64,000 nucleotides of DNA from Aegilops tauschii subsp. strangulata (lineage: Eukaryota; Streptophyta; Magnoliopsida; Poales; Poaceae). Below, one piece after another: positions 36,673-45,767 of the stretch (within the stretch, counting starts at the first letter, position 1; each line of letters begins with the position of its first letter). The notes beneath the pieces are model-generated. The model searched no databases and was not told the origin of the DNA. It saw only the letters and a program-made list of their open reading frames with translations. The stretch covers positions 156,489,148 to 156,553,147 of the forward strand of contig NC_053040.3 of assembly GCF_002575655.3 (NCBI RefSeq), read 5' to 3'. A program made the translations under genes and the position numbers.

Positions 36673-37865
36673 CTACCAACCACACGGATCTCGAGGAGCA
36701 GGAGCCGGCCTGCGTAGCTCGCTCTCGCTGTGGGCAAAGCGGCAGCCGTCGCCATACGTGCAGGATCCTCTGGCAAAGTGCGCGCACAGCCTGGTCTTGA
36801 CGCCGTTATATCGCCCTCCGCCGAGCACCGGGAGATGCTCCCAGACCATAGCGCTGGCGTGCCTGATCTGATCGGGCGTGCCCTCCAGCTCCACGTTCTT
36901 CAAGCCGGCGTCCCGCTCGTGGTCGCGGATGCGCAGCCTGGCGCCGCTGGCCCGGGATATCTCCCTGATGGTCGCTCCGCCCCGCCCGATGACAGCGCCC
37001 GCGAGGGACGCGTCCACGGTGATCTTGGACATCGCCGGAGCTGCGTTGGGCGGCGTCGGTGCTCTGAGTGCATGGTCGCCGGTGGGCCTTGGTTTGTCCA
37101 TGACCAGGGGTGGCGGCGTTGGATTGAGCCTGACAAGCTCCTCCTCGTCTTGTGCTGGAGCCGGAGCTGGACCACTCGGGATGCTCGTTTCTGCGACGGC
37201 ATGGGAGCCGGCCGGGATGTCGTGGATGAAGTGGCAGTTGGAACCAAAGCGGCAACCTGCGGTGCTGCACGATGAGGGACAAGAAAGTGATCAGATCTGT
37301 ATTGATGCCGAAATCAGGGGAGCTGGTGGTTACCTGAAGAACCTGACGCATGGCTTGGACTTGCTTCCTGCGCCTGCTTGAAACTCCTCCGGCTCTGCTA
37401 CACCAAAACAATCGATCATGCGGTTCCACGTTCATACGACAGTAGAATGGAAAATCTGGAGAGGAAACGACCAGGCCTGTTTCGTCTGGACTCACTCGGC
37501 TGGCTCACCTCGGTTTCGCCGAGGCAATTCCGGATCCCCTAGGCCTCCAGGAGCACCTCCAGCCAGAGTTTGGGAAGGAACCCACAGTGCGGCGTCATCG
37601 GGGTGCTTGGCCAAGTCGGCGTCGGCGGGCAGCAGCTTGCATGCCTCCAAGCTGCCGACGGCGAGCAGGAGCTCCCTCGAGTACGCCATCCTCTCCGTCC
37701 GCCTCGCGATGACGGCATCCCTCTCCTCCTCCTCCCTTGCAACGATCGTCCGGTCAAATTAATCGCATAAGTCGAGAAAGAATTAACCGCAAGACGGTCG
37801 CTGTACGAACGAGCGTACCTCGGCTGCATAGTGGCGTCATCACGAGGCGCCGAGGACGAGCTCAT
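36673..37865 (-). CDS. KHZ-3: CCCH / KH RNA-binding protein, short type
   Basis: Exons 37819-37865, 37509-37735, 37334-37394 and 36673-37264; 927 bases, 308 residues, all GT-AG and in phase. The N-terminal region has YSRELLLAVGSLEACKLL and the acidic KHPDD stretch. Finger 1 is C107, C116, C122, H126 (KPCVRFF joined by splicing to STAGCRFGSNCHFIH). The KH domain is about 193-256 with GRGG at 205-208; the C-terminal finger is C272, C280, C286, H290. It appears complete and is the best intact reference for the 5' half of KHZ-4. A longer overlapping frame at 36806-37495 is a shadow in another phase. A TATTTACATA element lies about 40 bases upstream of the start. Confidence 0.88.
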
Positions 37866-38518: not shown

Positions 38519-41500
38519 TCATGCGGCAGCCGATTTGAGCAGCTCATTTTCGCCATGGGCAAAGTGGCATCTGACGCCAAATGTGCACGACCCTTTCGTG
38601 AAGTTGTCGCACAGCTTGGTCTTGAAGTTGCTTCCCTACCCACCGCCGCCGGCGCGGTGAGATCCTCCGGCCAGGTTCTCACTCGGCAGAGGGGCGTTGG
38701 CGCCACCGCTGATCCTGAAGAACAACTCCCTGAGCATGGCGCTGGCGTTGTTGATCTGATCAAACGTGCCCTCGAGCTCAATGTTTTTCAAGGCTTCGTT
38801 TGATTCGTGGTCCCGGATGGCCAGCTTGGCCCCGGTGACTCGGGATATCTGCTTTGTGTTGACTCTACCCCGCCCGATGATGCCTCCTGCGAGGGACGCA
38901 TCGACACTGACCTTGGCTGTGGAAGAAGCCCCGAAGCCTGCTGGGATGGTCATGGCAGGGCTGGGCATTGCCGGAGGTCCAAAGTGGCCGGTGGGCCTTG
39001 GTCCCATATGGGGTGGCATGGACTTGTTGATGAACATGTGCTTGCCGAGCTCCCTCTCACCATGTGCAAAGTGGCACTTGTCACCCCATTTGCATCCCTC
39101 AGCAGTGTTGTACTTGTTGCACAATTTAGTCTTGACAGTTGGTGTAAGGGGGCCATCTGGAACTGCAGATCCTGCAGGCATTCTTCCTTGGGGATGTGCA
39201 AATGCTTGGCCACCCAGGTTGCTCATCTTTGCAACAGCCTGGTGGCCACCGGGAAAGTAATGGAGGAAATGGCAACCCTCGCCAAAGGGGCAACCAGAGG
39301 TACTGCACAATGAGAATAAGATGTGGGTAAGTAACTTAATTAGCAAGACAATTCATTTAAGCACAACTGATATTGACTAGGAGGATTCAGACATGAGAGT
39401 TCATAAGCCACAAGGGTAGGTGTTGATAGCATCTGAAGAGCAATAAACATTCTAGGGCAAACTTTGCCGAACACAGGAGACATTGTGGAGTACAATCCAA
39501 ATGGACAGAAGAAAAGTTCTACAATGACTGATGTTCTGATATTACAGTGAACTAATCTACATTTCGAATGTTTATAGATAATAATCATTCCTTTGTGTTG
39601 GCTCATTCTGCATCACAAAATCACAGGCAGTTTGGAGGACAAGAAACTATTCATGTGTGTTTCAGCAAAAGAAAAAAAATGAAGAGTTCCATAGTCAACA
39701 TTGTCAGTTTCGTCAAAGTACTTAAATACTGATGTTTGTTGAACGTCTATTTCAGGAAAGCTCTCTTATGGATCATAAGTTCAAATTTTGTTACTCCCTT
39801 ATGATTAAGTATCACAAGCTTGTGATGCTTCAGTGACTCAACAAGAAACTGTTGATGGACATATAATTTTAAACCATACAGTAAAACTATTCATGCATGT
39901 ACGAAATGTTAGAATAAATAGTATATATCAAGAACGATATATGTGGCAGAATTTCAGGTGTCCAACTCATATATTCGATCTTTGTTTCTATATCATGGTT
40001 TTAGAGTCACGCGACTAGTCGCAAAAAAATGTCGACTCAACTTAGCGTTGACTCGAGTCGCGAGTCGCGACTAGTCGCAACTGCAGGCTCGACTTTTTCC
40101 GAGTCGCTACCCCAAAGCGACTCAGATGAGTCACGACTCGAAAACCATGCATGATATTACTGGCTGGTTGTTCATCTGAAAGCAGTTACATATCCTTATA
40201 CTGTTCTTGCACTCTCACATATTCAGAAGCGATTTTGCACAACCCATGCACATTCCAATTTTTACTCCGGTCGAAGTTCTTAGAGCAAATTTGGAGATGT
40301 AAAACAGAAGATGTAAAAAGATTCATCTCCAAAAGAAACATTTTACATCTCTAAAAAAGAGAAAACTCCAACAGATGATGGAAATTGGTGATGTAAAAGT
40401 GCAACTCCAATGGATGATGCAAATGGAGATGTAAAAACTAGAATTGTCGCGAAACGCGGCGTTTGAATCGGGGCGGCGGCCACGGGGCAAAAGCTGTGCG
40501 ACGGAGCAGCGGTGGGTGTAGGAGCTAGGCGGTGGCTTGGAGATAGCGGATGAGCGGCGGTGACGGCGGAAACAGCGGCTGTGAAGCGGCGAAAAATGCG
40601 GTCGATTCGCAGCGTGCGGGCGGAGCGGCAGTGCGGTGGTGGCTGGGCAGGTGCTTGGCGGTTGGGTGGTGGTTAGGCGGGTGCTTGGTGGTCGGGTGAT
40701 GGCTGCGGCGACGGTGGCCGGGACAAACCGGGCGGCGGCGGTGGAGCGGCGGAAAATACGTCAGACTCGCGGCGTGCGGGCGGAGCGGTGATGCGGTGGT
40801 GGCTGGCCGGGTGCTTGGCAGCCGGGTGGTGGTTGCGGCGACAGCGGCGGGGACGAACCGGGCGGCAGCGGTGGAGCGACGAAAAATACGTCCGATTCAC
40901 GGCGTGCGGGCAGAGCGGCGATGCGGCGGTGGCTGGGCAGGTGCTTGGCGGTCGGGTAGTGGCTGCGGCGATGGCGGCGGGGACGAACCAGGCGGCGGCA
41001 ATGAAGCGGCGGAAAATACGTCAGATTCGTGGCGTGCGGGCGGAGCGGCGATGTGGTGGAGGCTGGGCGGGTACTTGGCGGTCAGGTGGTGGCTGTGGCG
41101 ACTGCGGCGGGGACGAACCGGGCGGCGGCGGTGGAGCGGCGGAAAATACATCTGATTTGCGGCGTGCAAGCAGAGCGGCGATGCGGTGGTAGCTGGGCGG
41201 GTGCTTGACGGTCAGGTGGTGGCTGCGGCGACGGCGGAAACCAGACGGCGGGGGTGGCTTATCGGGGCGGCGGATGAGCGGCGGAGGGGTGGTTGACGGT
41301 CGAAGGTGGCGCGGGCGGGCGGCGGCGGCAATGCTGCGAGTGAATCGGGGCGGCAGCGACTGTGCAGCGGGCGGAGAGAGGAAGAAGGGAAAGGAAATGA
41401 AGGTCGATTGGAGGTTGGCGCGCGGCCACCGTTTTTACATCTACTGGAGGTGGAGATACAAATTTACATCGTGAGGTGTTGTATTTTACATCTCCGAGAA

Positions 41501-44500
41501 GCGAAGATGTAATTTTTTTCCATCTACATCATCTGTTGGAGGTGGATTTTGGGGCCTCGGAGATGCAAAAGTTAGTTATCTTTGCATCTAGATCATTTGG
41601 AGATGCTTTTAAGCATGGATTAGAGAGAACCTGTTGCACAATCTTGCTTAAATGATTTGTTAGCAGCAAGCATTCTTTCACAGGTAAAAGTAAAGTTTTA
41701 ACGAAATAACAGATATGCATAATAAATGTTACCAGGTGGAGTTCATTTTAAGTTGGACTATAACCTGAAAAATTTGGTGCATGGCTTCAATTTGCTTCCT
41801 ACACCGGTTTGAAATGACTCCGATTCTGTTGAATCAAATTAATTATGCGCGCCATGTCAATAAGCTGTTGATTAACTAATCACACACCTGCTATTTTTGG
41901 AGCTGGAGCTGGGCCACTTGGGATGCTCGTTTCTGCGACGGCCTGAGAGCCGCCCGGGATGTCGTGGATGAAGTGGCAGTTGGAACCAAAGCGGCAGCCT
42001 GCGGTACTGCACGACAGGAAACAACATGCGGATAAGTAATTGAACCTGAACTAACGGAAGAAGAAAGTAATCTGAACTGCATTGATGCCGAAAGTAATGA
42101 GATCATAATTTTCTTTACCCCAAAACCGTAGAGCAATCGTTCTGCGGTAATTTTCAATTTTTCATTGATTAAGGTAATATGTACTACAAAGGATCAAAAT
42201 AAAAGAAAATACGGTACTCAGATCATGTTGACGCTGTCCCAGAAAGGGATTACCTGAAGAACCTGACGCATGGCTTGGATTTGCTTTCTGCGCCTGCTTC
42301 AAACGCCTCCGGCACTGTTACACCAAAACTATCGGTCATCACGCGGTTACGATAGTACAGTATACGGTGAGGAAAGTGGCCGGTGGGCCTTGGTCCCATA
42401 TGGGGTGGCATGGAGTTGTTGATGAATGTGTGCTTGCCGAGCTCCCTCTCACCATGTGCAAAGTGGCACTTGTCGCCCCATTTGCATCCCTCTGCAGTGT
42501 TATACTTGTTGCACAATTTAGTCTTGACAGTTGGTGTAGGGTGGCCATCTGGAACAGCAGATCCTGTGGGCATTCTTCCTTGGGGGTGTGCAAATGCTTG
42601 GCCACCCAGGTTGCTCATCTTTGCAACAGCCTGGTGGCCACCGGGGAAGTAATGGAGGAAATGGCAACCCTCGCCAAAGGGGCAACCAGAGGTACTGCAC
42701 AGTGAGAATAATATGTGGGTAAGTAATTTAATTAGAAAAAAAGTTCATTTAAGCGCAACTGATATTGACTAGGAAGACTCAGACATATGAATTCATAAGC
42801 CAAAAGGCTCATGAATATGATTACAAGTGTTGATAACATCTGAAGAACAATAAACATTCTAGGGCAAACTTTGCTGAACACAGGAGACATTGTGGACTAC
42901 AATCCAAATGCACAGAAGAAAAGTTCTAGAGTGACTGATGTTCTGATATAGAATGGACCTAATCTACATTTTTTTATATTTGTTGATAATAATCATTTCT
43001 TGGTATTGGCTCATTCTGCATCACACAAATCACAGGCAGTTTGGAGGACAAGAAACTATTCATGTGTGTTTCGGCAAAAGAAAAAATGAACAGTTCCTAG
43101 TCAACATTGTCAGTTTCATCAAAGTACTTAAATACTGATGTTTGTTGAACGTCTATTTCAGGAAGGCTCTCTTATGGATCATAAGTTCAAATTTTGTTAC
43201 TCCCTCATGATTAAGTATCACAAGCTTGTGATGCTTCAGTGACTCAACAAGAAACTGTTGATGGACATATAATTTAAACCATACAGTAAAACTATTCATG
43301 CATGTACCAAATGTTAGAATAAATAGTATATATCAAAAAGGATATATGTGGCAGAATTTCAGGTGTCCAACTCATATATTCAATCTTCGTTTTTCTCAAT
43401 TCGATAAGAGGCTGTATCATGATATTACTGGCTGGTTGTTCGTCTGAACAGCAGTCACATATCCTTATACTGTTCTTGCACTCTCACATATTCAGAAGCG
43501 ATTTTGGACAACCCATGCACATTCCAATTTTTACTCCAGTGGAAGTTCTTAAAGCATCTCCAATAGAAGATGCAAATTTGGAGATGTAAAAATTTACATC
43601 TCCAAAAAGTGCATTTTACATCTCCAAAAAAGAGACAACTCCAACAGATGATGGAAATTGGTGATGTAAAAGAGCAACTCCAATAGATGATGCAAATGGA
43701 GATGTAAAAACTAGAATTGGGGCGGCTGAGCGGCGACGGCCGAAATGCGGCGTTCAAATCGGTGTGGCGGCCGCGGGGCAAAAGCTGTGCGACGGCGGCA
43801 GGGTGTAGGGGCTAGGCGGTGGCTTGGCGGTGACGGCGGAAATGGCGGCGGTGGTGAGCGGCAAAAAATATGGTCGATTCGCAGTGTGCGGGCAGAGCGG
43901 CGGTGCGGTGGTGGCTGGGCGGGTGCTTGGCGGTTGGGTGGTGGTTGGGCAGGTGCTTGGTGGTCGAGTGGTGGCTGCAGCGACGGCGGCAGGGACGAAC
44001 CAGGCGGCGACGGTGGAGTGGCGGAAAATATGTTTGATTCGCGGCGTTCGGGCGGAGCGGCGATGCGGTGGTGACTGGGCGGGTGCTTGGTAGTCGTGTG
44101 GTGGCTGTGACGACGGCGGCAGGGACGAACCGGGCGGCGACGGTGGAGCGGCGGAAAATATGTTTGATCCGCGGCGTTCGGGCGAAGCGGCGATGCGGTG
44201 GTGACTGGGCGGGTGCTTGGCGATCGTGTGGTGGTTGCGGCGACGGCAGAAGTGGGGCGGCGCCGGCGTGAATCATGGCAGCGATTCGAAGCGGAGCGGC
44301 GGAGCAACGGCGGAGGTGTTTAGCGGACGGAGGTGGCACGGGCGGGCGGCGGCGGCTGTGCGGCGAGCAGAGAGAGAAAGTAGGGAAAGGAAATGAAGGG
44401 CGGTTGGCGGTTGGCAAGCACCGTTTTTACATCTACTGAAGGTGGAGATACAAATTAACATCATGAGGTGTTGTATTTTACATCTCCGAGAGGCTGAGAT

Positions 44501-45767
44501 GTAATTTTTTTTGCATCTACATCATCTGTTGGAGGTGGGTTTTGGGGCCTCTGAGATGCAAAAGTTAGTTATCTTTGCATCTAGATCATCTATTGGAGAT
44601 GCTCTTAAGCTTGGATTAGAGAGAACCTTTTGCACAATCTTGCTTAAATGATTTGTTAGCAACAAGCATTGTTTCACAGATAAAAGTAAAGTTTTAACGA
44701 AATAACAGGTATGCATAATAAATGTTACCAGGTGGAGTTCATTTTAGGTTGGACTATAACCTGGAAATTTTGGTGCATGGCTTCAATTTGCTTCCTACAC
44801 CTGTTTGAAATGACTCCGATTCTGTTGAATCAAATTAATTATGCGCGCCATGTTAACAAGCTGTTGATTAACTAATCGCATACCTGTTATTTTTGGAGCT
44901 GGAGCTGGGCCACTCGGGATGCTCGTTTCTGCGACGGCCTGGGAGCCGCCCGGGATGTCGTGGATGAAGTGGCAGTTGGAACCAAAGCGGCAACCTGCGG
45001 TACTGCACGTGCACGATGAGAAACACCATGCTGATAAGTAACTGAACCTGAACTAACGGAACAAGAAAGTAATCAGAACTGCAATGATGCCGAAGGTAAT
45101 CAGATCATGTTTTTCTTTACCCCAAAACCGTAGAACAGTTGTTCTGTGGTAATTTTCAATCTTTCACTAATTAAGGTATATGTACAATGGATCAAAATAA
45201 AAAGAAAATACAGTACTCGGGTCATGTTGGCGTTGTCCCAGAAAGGGATTACCTGAAGAACCTGACGCATGGCTTGGATTTGCTTCCCGCGCCTGCTTCA
45301 AACGCCTCCGGCACTGTACACCAAAACAATCGATCATGCGGTTCCAAGTTCAGTATACGCATCGCAGAATGGAAAATCTGGAGAGGAAACGAGCAAGCCA
45401 GTTTCGTCTGCACTCACTCGGCTCGCTCACCTCGGTTTCGCCGAGGCAATTCCGGATCCCCTATGCCTCCAGGAGCACCTCCAGGAACCCACAGTGCGGC
45501 ATCATCGGGGTGCTTGGCCAAGTCGGCGTGGGCGGGCAGCAGCTTGCATGCCTCCAAGCTGCCGACGGCGAGCAGGAGCCCCCTCGAGTACGTCATCCTC
45601 TTCGTCCGCCTCGCGATGACGTCGTTCCTCTCCTCCTCCCTTGCAACGATCGGCCGGTCAGATGAATCAATTGACAGACGGCGGTCGCTGTATGAACGAG
45701 CGTACCTCGTCGTGGCTACGGAGGGAGGAATAGCGGCATCATCACGAGGCGCCGAGGCCGAGCTCAT
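38519..45767 (-). CDS. KHZ-4: chimeric, internally duplicated six-finger CCCH / KH gene
   Basis: Exons: 45706-45767, 45431-45639, 45253-45313, 44884-45002, 44761-44821, 42254-42694, 41888-42006, 41765-41825, 38636-39302. All have GT-AG and matching phase; 1800 bases, 599 residues. Exons 1-4 are KHZ-3-like, exon 5 on is KHZ-5-like, and the unit of exons 3-6 repeats as exons 6-9. CCCH fingers start at C106, C166, C232, C313, C373 and C439. The KH domain is about 509-571, but its loop is GRGR (521-524). A TAG at 38636-38638 replaces the CAG of KHZ-5; 38 in-frame codons with a seventh finger follow to the old stop at 38519. Two Harbinger-type insertions and a MITE lie in introns. It may be an active novel gene or a decaying one. 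Transcription is untested. Confidence 0.7.
39998..40145. mobile_element. Self-complementary MITE in one intron copy
   Basis: 148 bp flanked by catg (39994-39997 and 40146-40149). Ends are gttttagagtc and, reversed, gttttcgagtc. The interior is a dense set of gcgactagtcgc / gagtcgcgactc palindromes. The corresponding intron copies at 43.4 kb and 47.9 kb lack it, so it arrived after the 3-kb duplication. Confidence 0.75.
40283..41608. mobile_element. Harbinger-type insertion in KHZ-4, older copy
   Basis: 1.33 kb at the same intron site as the 43552 insertion, with TTA flanks (40280-40282, 41609-41611). The left terminus has lost part of gcatctccaatagaagatg; the right end reads, reversed, gcatctccaaatgatctag. 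The GC-rich interior contains about four tandem units of roughly 129 bp (gcgtgcgggcggagcgg). Antisense proline-rich frames in it are not considered genes. Confidence 0.75.
42371..45355 (-). repeat. KHZ-4 internal duplication, unit 1
   Basis: The first copy of the duplicated unit. Its end at about 42370 joins the last three-finger-type exon directly to the second intron of a short-type gene (cagtatac shared with 45353-45360), with a microhomology near the joint. Exon order and sizes (61, 119, 61 bases) are the same in both units. Confidence 0.8.
43552..44604. mobile_element. Harbinger-type insertion in KHZ-4, younger-looking copy
   Basis: 1.05 kb with TIRs agcatctccaatagaagatg and, reversed, agcatctccaatagatgatc, flanked by TTA (43549-43551, 44605-44607). 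The equivalent site in KHZ-5 intron 2 (48139-48141) is empty with a single TTA. The interior is GC-rich with roughly 120-bp tandem units and no transposase. Confidence 0.85.

What the first reader, a model, noticed from the sequence alone, without database searches (positions are those of the whole stretch)
38519..45767. A new chimeric gene with six CCCH fingers and a KH domain, all nine exons in phase
Seen: exons of a KHZ-3-type gene are followed by exons of a KHZ-5-type gene, and a unit of about 3 kb is then repeated, yet all eight junctions keep the frame (total 1800 bases, 599 residues). Known: plant KHZ proteins usually have two or three fingers plus KH. Inference: unequal recombination between tandem neighbours built a longer RNA-binding protein. 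Phase conservation follows partly from shared intron phases, so it does not by itself prove function.
Basis: partly seen in the sequence, partly recalled or inferred. Interest (0 to 1): 0.88.

Follow-up and report, generated by a model that had tools for sequence, protein, structure and literature searches.

The report
Fused, decaying zinc-finger gene in goatgrass
In wild goatgrass (a wheat ancestor) two neighbouring RNA-binding genes have been fused and doubled into one long reading frame, but the copy carries a premature stop and a damaged binding loop, so it looks more like a reshuffled gene falling apart than a working new six-finger protein.

Summary
The nine-exon frame is really there: 1800 bases, 599 residues, six CCCH motifs and one KH domain, all eight junctions in phase. 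But the frame ends at an in-frame TAG (38638-38636), not at the finding's end 38519; this cuts off the C-terminal finger. The KH GXXG loop reads GRGR, and one finger lost an aromatic pair kept in 170 of 170 matched proteins. The locus is from Aegilops tauschii: NCBI's 477-aa P0001 is reproduced residue for residue. Neither public model I saw has the 599-aa frame: one joins exon 4 straight to exon 6, the other stops in intron 4; the critical exon 4-5 junction is in neither. Anatomy: a fusion joined the 5' half of one tandem gene to the 3' half of another, and is also seen in a wheat protein. The module was doubled, exchanged its last exon with the intact upstream neighbour (0 of 10,000 permutations), and a second short-homology joint fused the copies. 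Wheat P0108 lacks both the stop and the loop change, its only differences from the second unit's last exon. Best reading: a reshuffled tandem duplicate recently losing function. A working six-finger protein is possible but unlikely without transcript evidence.

The parts
45706..45767 (-). exon 1 (K5-type), start ATG 45767-45765
   Evidence: in-frame retention of the 66-nt intron 1 occurs in NCBI model P0221
45431..45639 (-). exon 2 (K5-type)
   Evidence: in P0221
45253..45313 (-). exon 3 (K5-type), first half of finger A
   Evidence: in P0221
44884..45002 (-). exon 4 (K5-type), second half of finger A, ends at junction 1
   Evidence: used by P0221 in this frame and by P0001 in another frame
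44879..44894 (-). junction 1, unit 1: K5 exon 4 joined to K3 intron 1; the new splice donor of exon 4 lies here
   Evidence: homology to K5c ends 44894, homology to K3a intron 1 starts 44879
44761..44821 (-). exon 5 (K3 exon 2 type), first half of finger B; FF changed to IS; skipped in P0001
43552..44604 (-). inserted element in intron 5 (AGCATCTCCAAT ends, 130-bp inner repeat), absent from K3a
   Evidence: ends approximate
42254..42694 (-). exon 6: K3 last-exon part (fingers B, C) + 58 nt of former intron + K5 exon 3
   Evidence: identical in P0001
42315..42375 (-). junction 2: K3 last exon joined inside K5 intron 2 (TTT microhomology), former intron read through
42373..42875 (-). K3a-like tract at the end of unit 1 (4 differences in 488 aligned columns versus K3a, 33 versus unit 2)
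   Evidence: max-chi2 breakpoint 42880/42875, 0 of 10,000 permutations
41888..42006 (-). exon 7 (K5 exon 4 type), finger A'
41765..41825 (-). exon 8 (K3 exon 2 type), finger B'
38636..39302 (-). exon 9, translated part: fingers B', C', KH (GRGR loop), stop TAG 38638-38636
38519..38635 (-). untranslated remnant of the C-terminal finger up to the ancestral TGA
   Evidence: translated in wheat P0108
46413..49036 (-). K3a: intact upstream neighbour, 3 exons (49036-48970, 48355-48295, 47199-46413), 304 aa, finger-finger-KH-finger
36673..37865 (-). K5c: intact downstream neighbour, 4 exons, 308 aa; equals NCBI P0224 (Ae. tauschii, contig of the same length as P0001's) apart from one extra alanine there

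Best explanation
The locus is a reshuffled tandem duplicate in an Aegilops tauschii KHZ-type (CCCH + KH) array that is losing function, not an established six-finger protein. Steps read from the sequence: (1) tandem K3-K5 gene pairs; (2) the 5' half of a K5 gene joined to the 3' half of the next K3 gene (junction 1), giving a new splice donor and a chimera with the K5 start, finger A and the K3 finger-finger-KH-finger part; (3) an element in its intron 5; (4) the chimera module doubled; (5) the end of unit 1 replaced by, or crossed over with, K3a; (6) junction 2, joining unit 1's last exon to intron 2 of the second chimera, so that the first KH and the second start are gone. Inferred: the order of 5 and 6. 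Disabling changes: a stop that removes the last finger, a loop change G-R-G-G to G-R-G-R in the only KH, and FF to IS in finger B of unit 1. Any transcript most likely yields truncated or alternatively framed products (inferred).
For: TAG and GRGR read directly. Wheat P0108 differs from the second unit's last exon at two residues only, exactly the two damaging ones, G to R and Q to stop. Of 224 retrieved proteins 175 matched my KH-loop pattern and 171 of these end the loop in G; of the four that do not, two are misplaced matches outside KH (P0013, P0055), leaving P0001 (this locus) and P0002 of Ulmus. 167 of the 175 have a finger C-terminal of the match. F or Y, then F, in the first matched finger in 170 of 170, with 54 of 224 unmatched. 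Public model P0001 skips exon 5; P0221 ends in intron 4 at TAG 44797-44795. Mosaic tract: 32 sites shared with K3a versus 3 with unit 2 from 42875 on, against 17 versus 24 before it; 0 of 10,000 permutations reach the chi2. Element in both units, absent from the K3a site. Loop importance: GXXG to GDDG abolishes nucleotide binding, as reported in passages of PMC4560694; that is a different substitution.
Against: The frame stays open for 599 codons although unit introns differ by 4.5-10.7%, so the pieces were probably under constraint until recently; dN/dS between K3a and unit 2 is 0.24 over 258 codons, the codons behind the TAG included. The stop lies in the last exon, so no decay signal is expected from it (established knowledge). 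NCBI keeps a 5-member protein cluster for the locus, which may reflect transcript support; I saw only its representative. [quoted passage not shown] The effect of G to R is not measured.
Confidence: 0.66

Rival explanations
1. One reading: a working new RNA-binding protein with six fingers and a KH domain, made from all nine exons.
For: Open in-phase frame of 599 codons with GT..AG at 8 of 8 introns; all six motifs keep Cys/His spacing; P0001 includes exons 6-9 with the read-through junction 2; wheat P0122 has the exon 4-5 join in frame.
Against: Premature TAG, altered KH loop and finger core; no 599-residue model of this locus among the 105 proteins returned for it; both models of this locus that I saw avoid the exon 4-5 join.
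Confidence: 0.12
2. The locus is expressed through exon-5 skipping and makes a K3-like shorter protein (P0001-type: exon 4 in another frame, then fingers and KH), perhaps competing with K3a.
For: Both Ae. tauschii P0001 and wheat P0108 read exon 4 in the other frame and join it directly to K3 last-exon sequence; P0108's cluster has 26 members.
Against: These are gene models and I saw no reads. P0001 needs a start inside intron 3, lacks the first half of finger B of unit 1, and has the altered KH loop and no last finger.
Confidence: 0.15
3. Assembly error: the 3-kb doubling is false.
For: Repeats of 3 kb with inner 130-bp arrays are hard to assemble (array; difficulty: general knowledge).
Against: Units differ by 4.5-13.5% in non-coding parts, too much for a falsely doubled copy; P0001 spans junction 2 and most of both units, though I could not tell whether it comes from a different assembly.
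Confidence: 0.05

Closest known systems
Plant CCCH-KH proteins of the KHZ1/KHZ2 (Arabidopsis) and rice 'CCCH domain-containing protein 14' type
   Same: Order finger-finger-KH-finger of K3a; rice protein P0107 is 83% identical to K3a over its whole length. [quoted passage not shown]
   Different: The window gene doubles the finger part, has one KH with a GRGR loop, and lacks the terminal finger.
Single-unit K5-K3 chimera in wheat (P0122; P0108 probably the same kind)
   Same: Junction 1 in frame in P0122; P0108 has the unit-2 type last exon.
   Different: No junction 2 in either sequence; P0108 keeps GRGG and the last finger; P0122 shifts frame within KH. P0108 could be a partial model of a doubled gene.
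Fusion genes of grasses (310 in four Oryza species)
   Same: Duplication of a parent gene followed by fusion, named as the main pattern in a section heading of PMC9199173 (outline and abstract only).
   Different: Here two joints within one array, with disabling changes.
HUA1, Arabidopsis protein with six CCCH motifs
   Same: Six CCCH motifs, RNA-binding (passage of PMC7504113).
   Different: A different CCCH protein; that it has no KH domain is recalled.

Membership tests
KHZ-type CCCH-KH protein | CCCH fingers before a KH domain | tested here: met
   six motifs at residues 106-458, KH_1 at 506-570
KHZ-type CCCH-KH protein | CCCH finger C-terminal of KH | tested here: not met
   TAG 38638-38636 precedes it; 167 of 175 retrieved proteins with a matched loop have it
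KHZ-type CCCH-KH protein | GXXG loop in KH | tested here: not met
   GRGR; 171 of 175 pattern matches end in G, and of the four that do not, two lie outside KH, leaving this locus and P0002
KHZ-type CCCH-KH protein | RNA binding | not testable with these tools
   needs a binding assay
Fusion gene made from tandem neighbours | parts trace to two neighbouring gene types still present | tested here: met
   K3a and K5c flank it; homology switches at 44894/44879 and 42373/42366
Fusion gene made from tandem neighbours | transcript crosses both junctions | tested here: inconclusive
   gene model P0001 crosses junction 2 but skips exon 5, and P0221 reads through junction 1 and ends just after it; no reads available
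Pseudogene or decaying copy | disabling changes relative to a close relative | tested here: met
   two differences from P0108 in the last exon, both damaging
Pseudogene or decaying copy | relaxed selection after the fusion | tested here: inconclusive
   dN/dS values mix time before and after the fusion, and unit 1 is K3a-like at its end

The most novel reading that the evidence does not exclude
The nine-exon transcript is made and its protein works as a finger-only RNA binder: six CCCH fingers in two repeated triplets with the KH loop switched off, so that reshuffling within one array turned a KH-led regulator into a polyvalent CCCH binder within one species.
Probability: 0.1. Interest if true: 0.6.

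Novelty: new variant of a known kind. Interest (0 to 1): 0.3.

Why it matters
The array preserves successive steps of gene fusion and its failure in one place: intact genes of both parent types on either side, a first fusion shared with wheat, a second joint seen here only in Aegilops tauschii, an exchange tract with a mapped breakpoint, and two disabling changes absent from the wheat relative. It is a compact case for asking whether grass fusion genes usually persist or decay, and a warning that a long in-phase frame in a tandem array is weak evidence for a working protein.

Tried and rejected
Own-genome search (genome search, PF00642, where own) was tried seven times with the same request and never answered, so other copies of junction 2 in the genome were not sought.

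The end of unit 1 is K3a-like, so its ratio to unit 2 (0.19, 107 codons) is really K3a against the chimera; K3a against unit 1 gives 0.14 from 3 changes. Exon 4 alone has 39 codons: 0.10 between units from 4 changes, 1.12 for unit 1 and 0.41 for unit 2 against K5c, the last two swollen by the non-matching bases at junction 1.

Simple tandem duplication of one chimera was considered for the doubling. Alone it does not explain why the last 488 aligned columns of unit 1 match K3a (4 differences) far better than unit 2 (33), so an exchange with K3a is needed in addition.

My first exon-2 and K5c exon boundaries were off by a few bases and were corrected; nothing in the report uses the first versions.

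Papers: Aegilops with fusion terms (10 of 107 listed) and CCCH with Aegilops tauschii (10 of 15 listed) gave listings without this locus; I read listings only for these. Barley CCCH paper PMC8922935 (passages): five KH-containing members and a tandem pair HvC3H41/42, no fusion in the passages shown. No structure was predicted; it would not settle expression or binding.
Full report
WHAT WAS CHECKED. The frame from ATG 45767 runs 599 codons to TAG 38638-38636, 1800 nt in all. The finding's lower coordinate, 38519, is the last base of a TGA that matches the stop of the neighbour K3a, 117 nt beyond the TAG. Six C-x7/8-C-x5-C-x3-H motifs start at residues 106, 166, 232, 313, 373 and 439, and Pfam places KH_1 at 506-570 with E 3.2e-09.

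WHERE IT IS FROM. The best hit of the 599-residue protein is P0001, 'zinc finger CCCH domain-containing protein 14-like' of Aegilops tauschii subsp. strangulata, 477 aa, five member sequences, on one contig of 497,521,935 bases. Joining window stretches 45029-44884, 42694-42254, 42006-41888, 41825-41765 and 39302-38636 reproduces P0001 residue for residue. The contig length suggests chromosome 6D (recalled, not tested). The downstream neighbour K5c equals P0224, listed for Ae. tauschii on a contig of the same length, apart from one extra alanine in P0224.

WHAT PUBLIC MODELS SAY. P0001 starts inside intron 3, reads exon 4 in another frame and joins it directly to exon 6, so exon 5 is skipped; exons 6 to 9, junction 2 and the TAG are as in the window. 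A second Ae. tauschii record, P0221 (LOC109749962, 201 aa), is reproduced by 45767-45431, 45313-45253 and a read from 45002 through intron 4 to a stop at 44797-44795: one finger and no KH. These are gene models; I saw no reads, and of P0001's five members only the representative. In the 599-residue search 105 proteins were returned from 7997 scored candidates and none is a 599-residue model of this locus.

ANATOMY. I call the two parent types K3 (K3a, 49036-46413, 304 aa) and K5 (K5c, 37865-36673, 308 aa); both flanking copies are open and complete. The stretch 47902-45249 (K3a end, spacer, K5-type start) aligns to 39989-37330 (K3-type end, spacer, K5c start) at 84%, so the array was built from K3-K5 pairs. 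Junction 1: homology to K5c exon 4 stops at 44894 and homology to K3a intron 1 starts at 44879; the bases between match neither. The new donor of exon 4 sits in this joint. Junction 2: K3 last-exon sequence ends at GGCCACTTT and continues with K5 intron 2; only TTT is shared. The 58 nt of former intron are read as PHRILYYRNRVMTDSFGVT before the old exon 3. Of the three frames of exon 6 only the used one is open.

EXCHANGE WITH K3a. In a three-way alignment of 982 ungapped columns (started after a stretch disturbed by insertions), unit 1 agrees with K3a against unit 2 at 49 sites, with unit 2 against K3a at 27, and stands alone at 9. The order is not random: up to 42880 it is 17 (K3a) against 24 (unit 2); from 42875 on it is 32 against 3. 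The maximum chi2 is 20.6 and 0 of 10,000 permutations reach it. The 3' tract differs from K3a at 4 of 488 columns and from unit 2 at 33. The inserted element in introns 5 and 8 is absent from K3a, so both units descend from one chimera. The simplest history is an unequal exchange between K3a and the chimera, or conversion by K3a, plus junction 2; which came first is not resolved. Units differ by 10.7% in intron 3, 6.5% in intron 4, 4.5% in intron 5 before the element, 13.5% within the element, 3.4% in exon 4 and 4.9% in exon 5, so the two modules are old while the K3a-like tract is young.

WHEAT RELATIVES. P0122 (wheat, 310 aa) carries K5 exon 3, exon 4, the K3 exon 2 and the K3 last exon in one frame, that is junction 1 with exon 5 included; it then shifts frame inside KH. 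P0108 (wheat, 306 aa, 26 members) reads exon 4 in the other frame and joins it to a last exon of the unit-2 type. Compared with the window's unit 2, this last exon differs at two residues only, G to R in the KH loop and Q to stop. A search with the junction-2 stretch (residues 165-235 of a 273-aa piece) returned 10 proteins, and only P0001 covers the whole stretch. Junction 1 is therefore shared with wheat. P0122 and P0108 are different genes on contigs of different length; if P0122 belongs to the A or B subgenome, junction 1 predates the D lineage, but I did not determine its subgenome. Junction 2 was seen only in Ae. tauschii. P0108 could also be a partial model of a doubled gene, so the age of junction 2 is open.

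SIGNS OF DAMAGE. (a) The TAG removes the C-terminal finger; 167 of the 175 retrieved proteins in which my pattern finds a KH loop have a finger after it (49 of 224 had no pattern match). (b) The loop reads G-R-G-R; 171 of the 175 matches end in G. Of the four others two (P0013, P0055) are matches outside the KH domain, which leaves P0001 itself and an Ulmus protein, P0002. That GXXG is needed for nucleotide binding is taken from passages of PMC4560694, which tested GDDG, not this change. (c) In unit 1 the first half of finger B reads KPCTKISS instead of KPCTKFFS; F or Y followed by F occurs in the first matched finger of 170 of 170 proteins (54 of 224 unmatched). Against this: the frame has no other stop or shift, K3a and unit 2 show dN/dS 0.24 over 258 codons including those behind the TAG, and the TAG is in the last exon. 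The parts were under constraint in the past. [quoted passage not shown]

HOW IT WOULD WORK. If the K5-side promoter is active, the transcript must splice a new intron at junction 1. Skipping exon 5 shifts the frame of the K5 start, so products from the old ATG would be short; a start further down gives P0001-like products (inferred). Related KHZ1 and KHZ2 are nuclear, bind RNA in vitro and lower FLC splicing efficiency (passages of PMC8347928). A product lacking the last finger and with an altered KH loop would be expected to bind RNA less well or differently (inferred).

NOVELTY. None of the 224 retrieved proteins has five or more conventional CCCH motifs; the counts are 9 with one, 41 with two, 158 with three and 16 with four. 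The lists were capped: 120 of 1100 shown, and only the 7997 candidates sharing most words scored. Six-finger CCCH proteins as such are known: HUA1, passage of PMC7504113. Grass fusion genes are common: 310 in four Oryza species (abstract of PMC9199173). I saw no paper on this locus in the listings (3 of 3; 10 of 107; 12 of 54; 10 of 15). Verdict: a new variant of a known kind, a chimeric tandem duplicate, most likely decaying.

Noticed in passing
window 34478-33855 and 16773-16165, minus strand: A K5-type gene has exons 1-3 at 34.5-33.9 kb but no last exon nearby; an orphan K5-type last exon (finger, KH, finger, open) lies 17 kb further on, as if insertions had split one gene.
   Followed up: partly
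window 5623-4296, minus strand: A further K5-type gene; the translation of its first three exons, compared by eye with the wheat 338-aa protein P0021, shows one difference; the last exon was not compared.
   Followed up: partly
window 44604-43552 and 41609-40284: Intron element with AGCATCTCCAAT ends and a 130-bp inner tandem repeat, 2.4 copies in unit 1 and 4.4 in unit 2; absent from the K3a intron.
   Followed up: partly
window 40149-39994, minus strand: A 156-bp GACTCG-rich insertion with inverted ends CATGGTTTT / AAAACCATG, in unit 2 and not at the corresponding places of unit 1 or K3a.
   Followed up: no
window 45705-45640, minus strand: Intron 1 is 66 nt, in frame and stop-free; NCBI model P0221 retains it.
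   Followed up: yes
window 57178-54011, minus strand: An aminotransferase gene resembling nicotianamine/tyrosine aminotransferases (family name recalled; first exon translated; extent read by eye).
   Followed up: no
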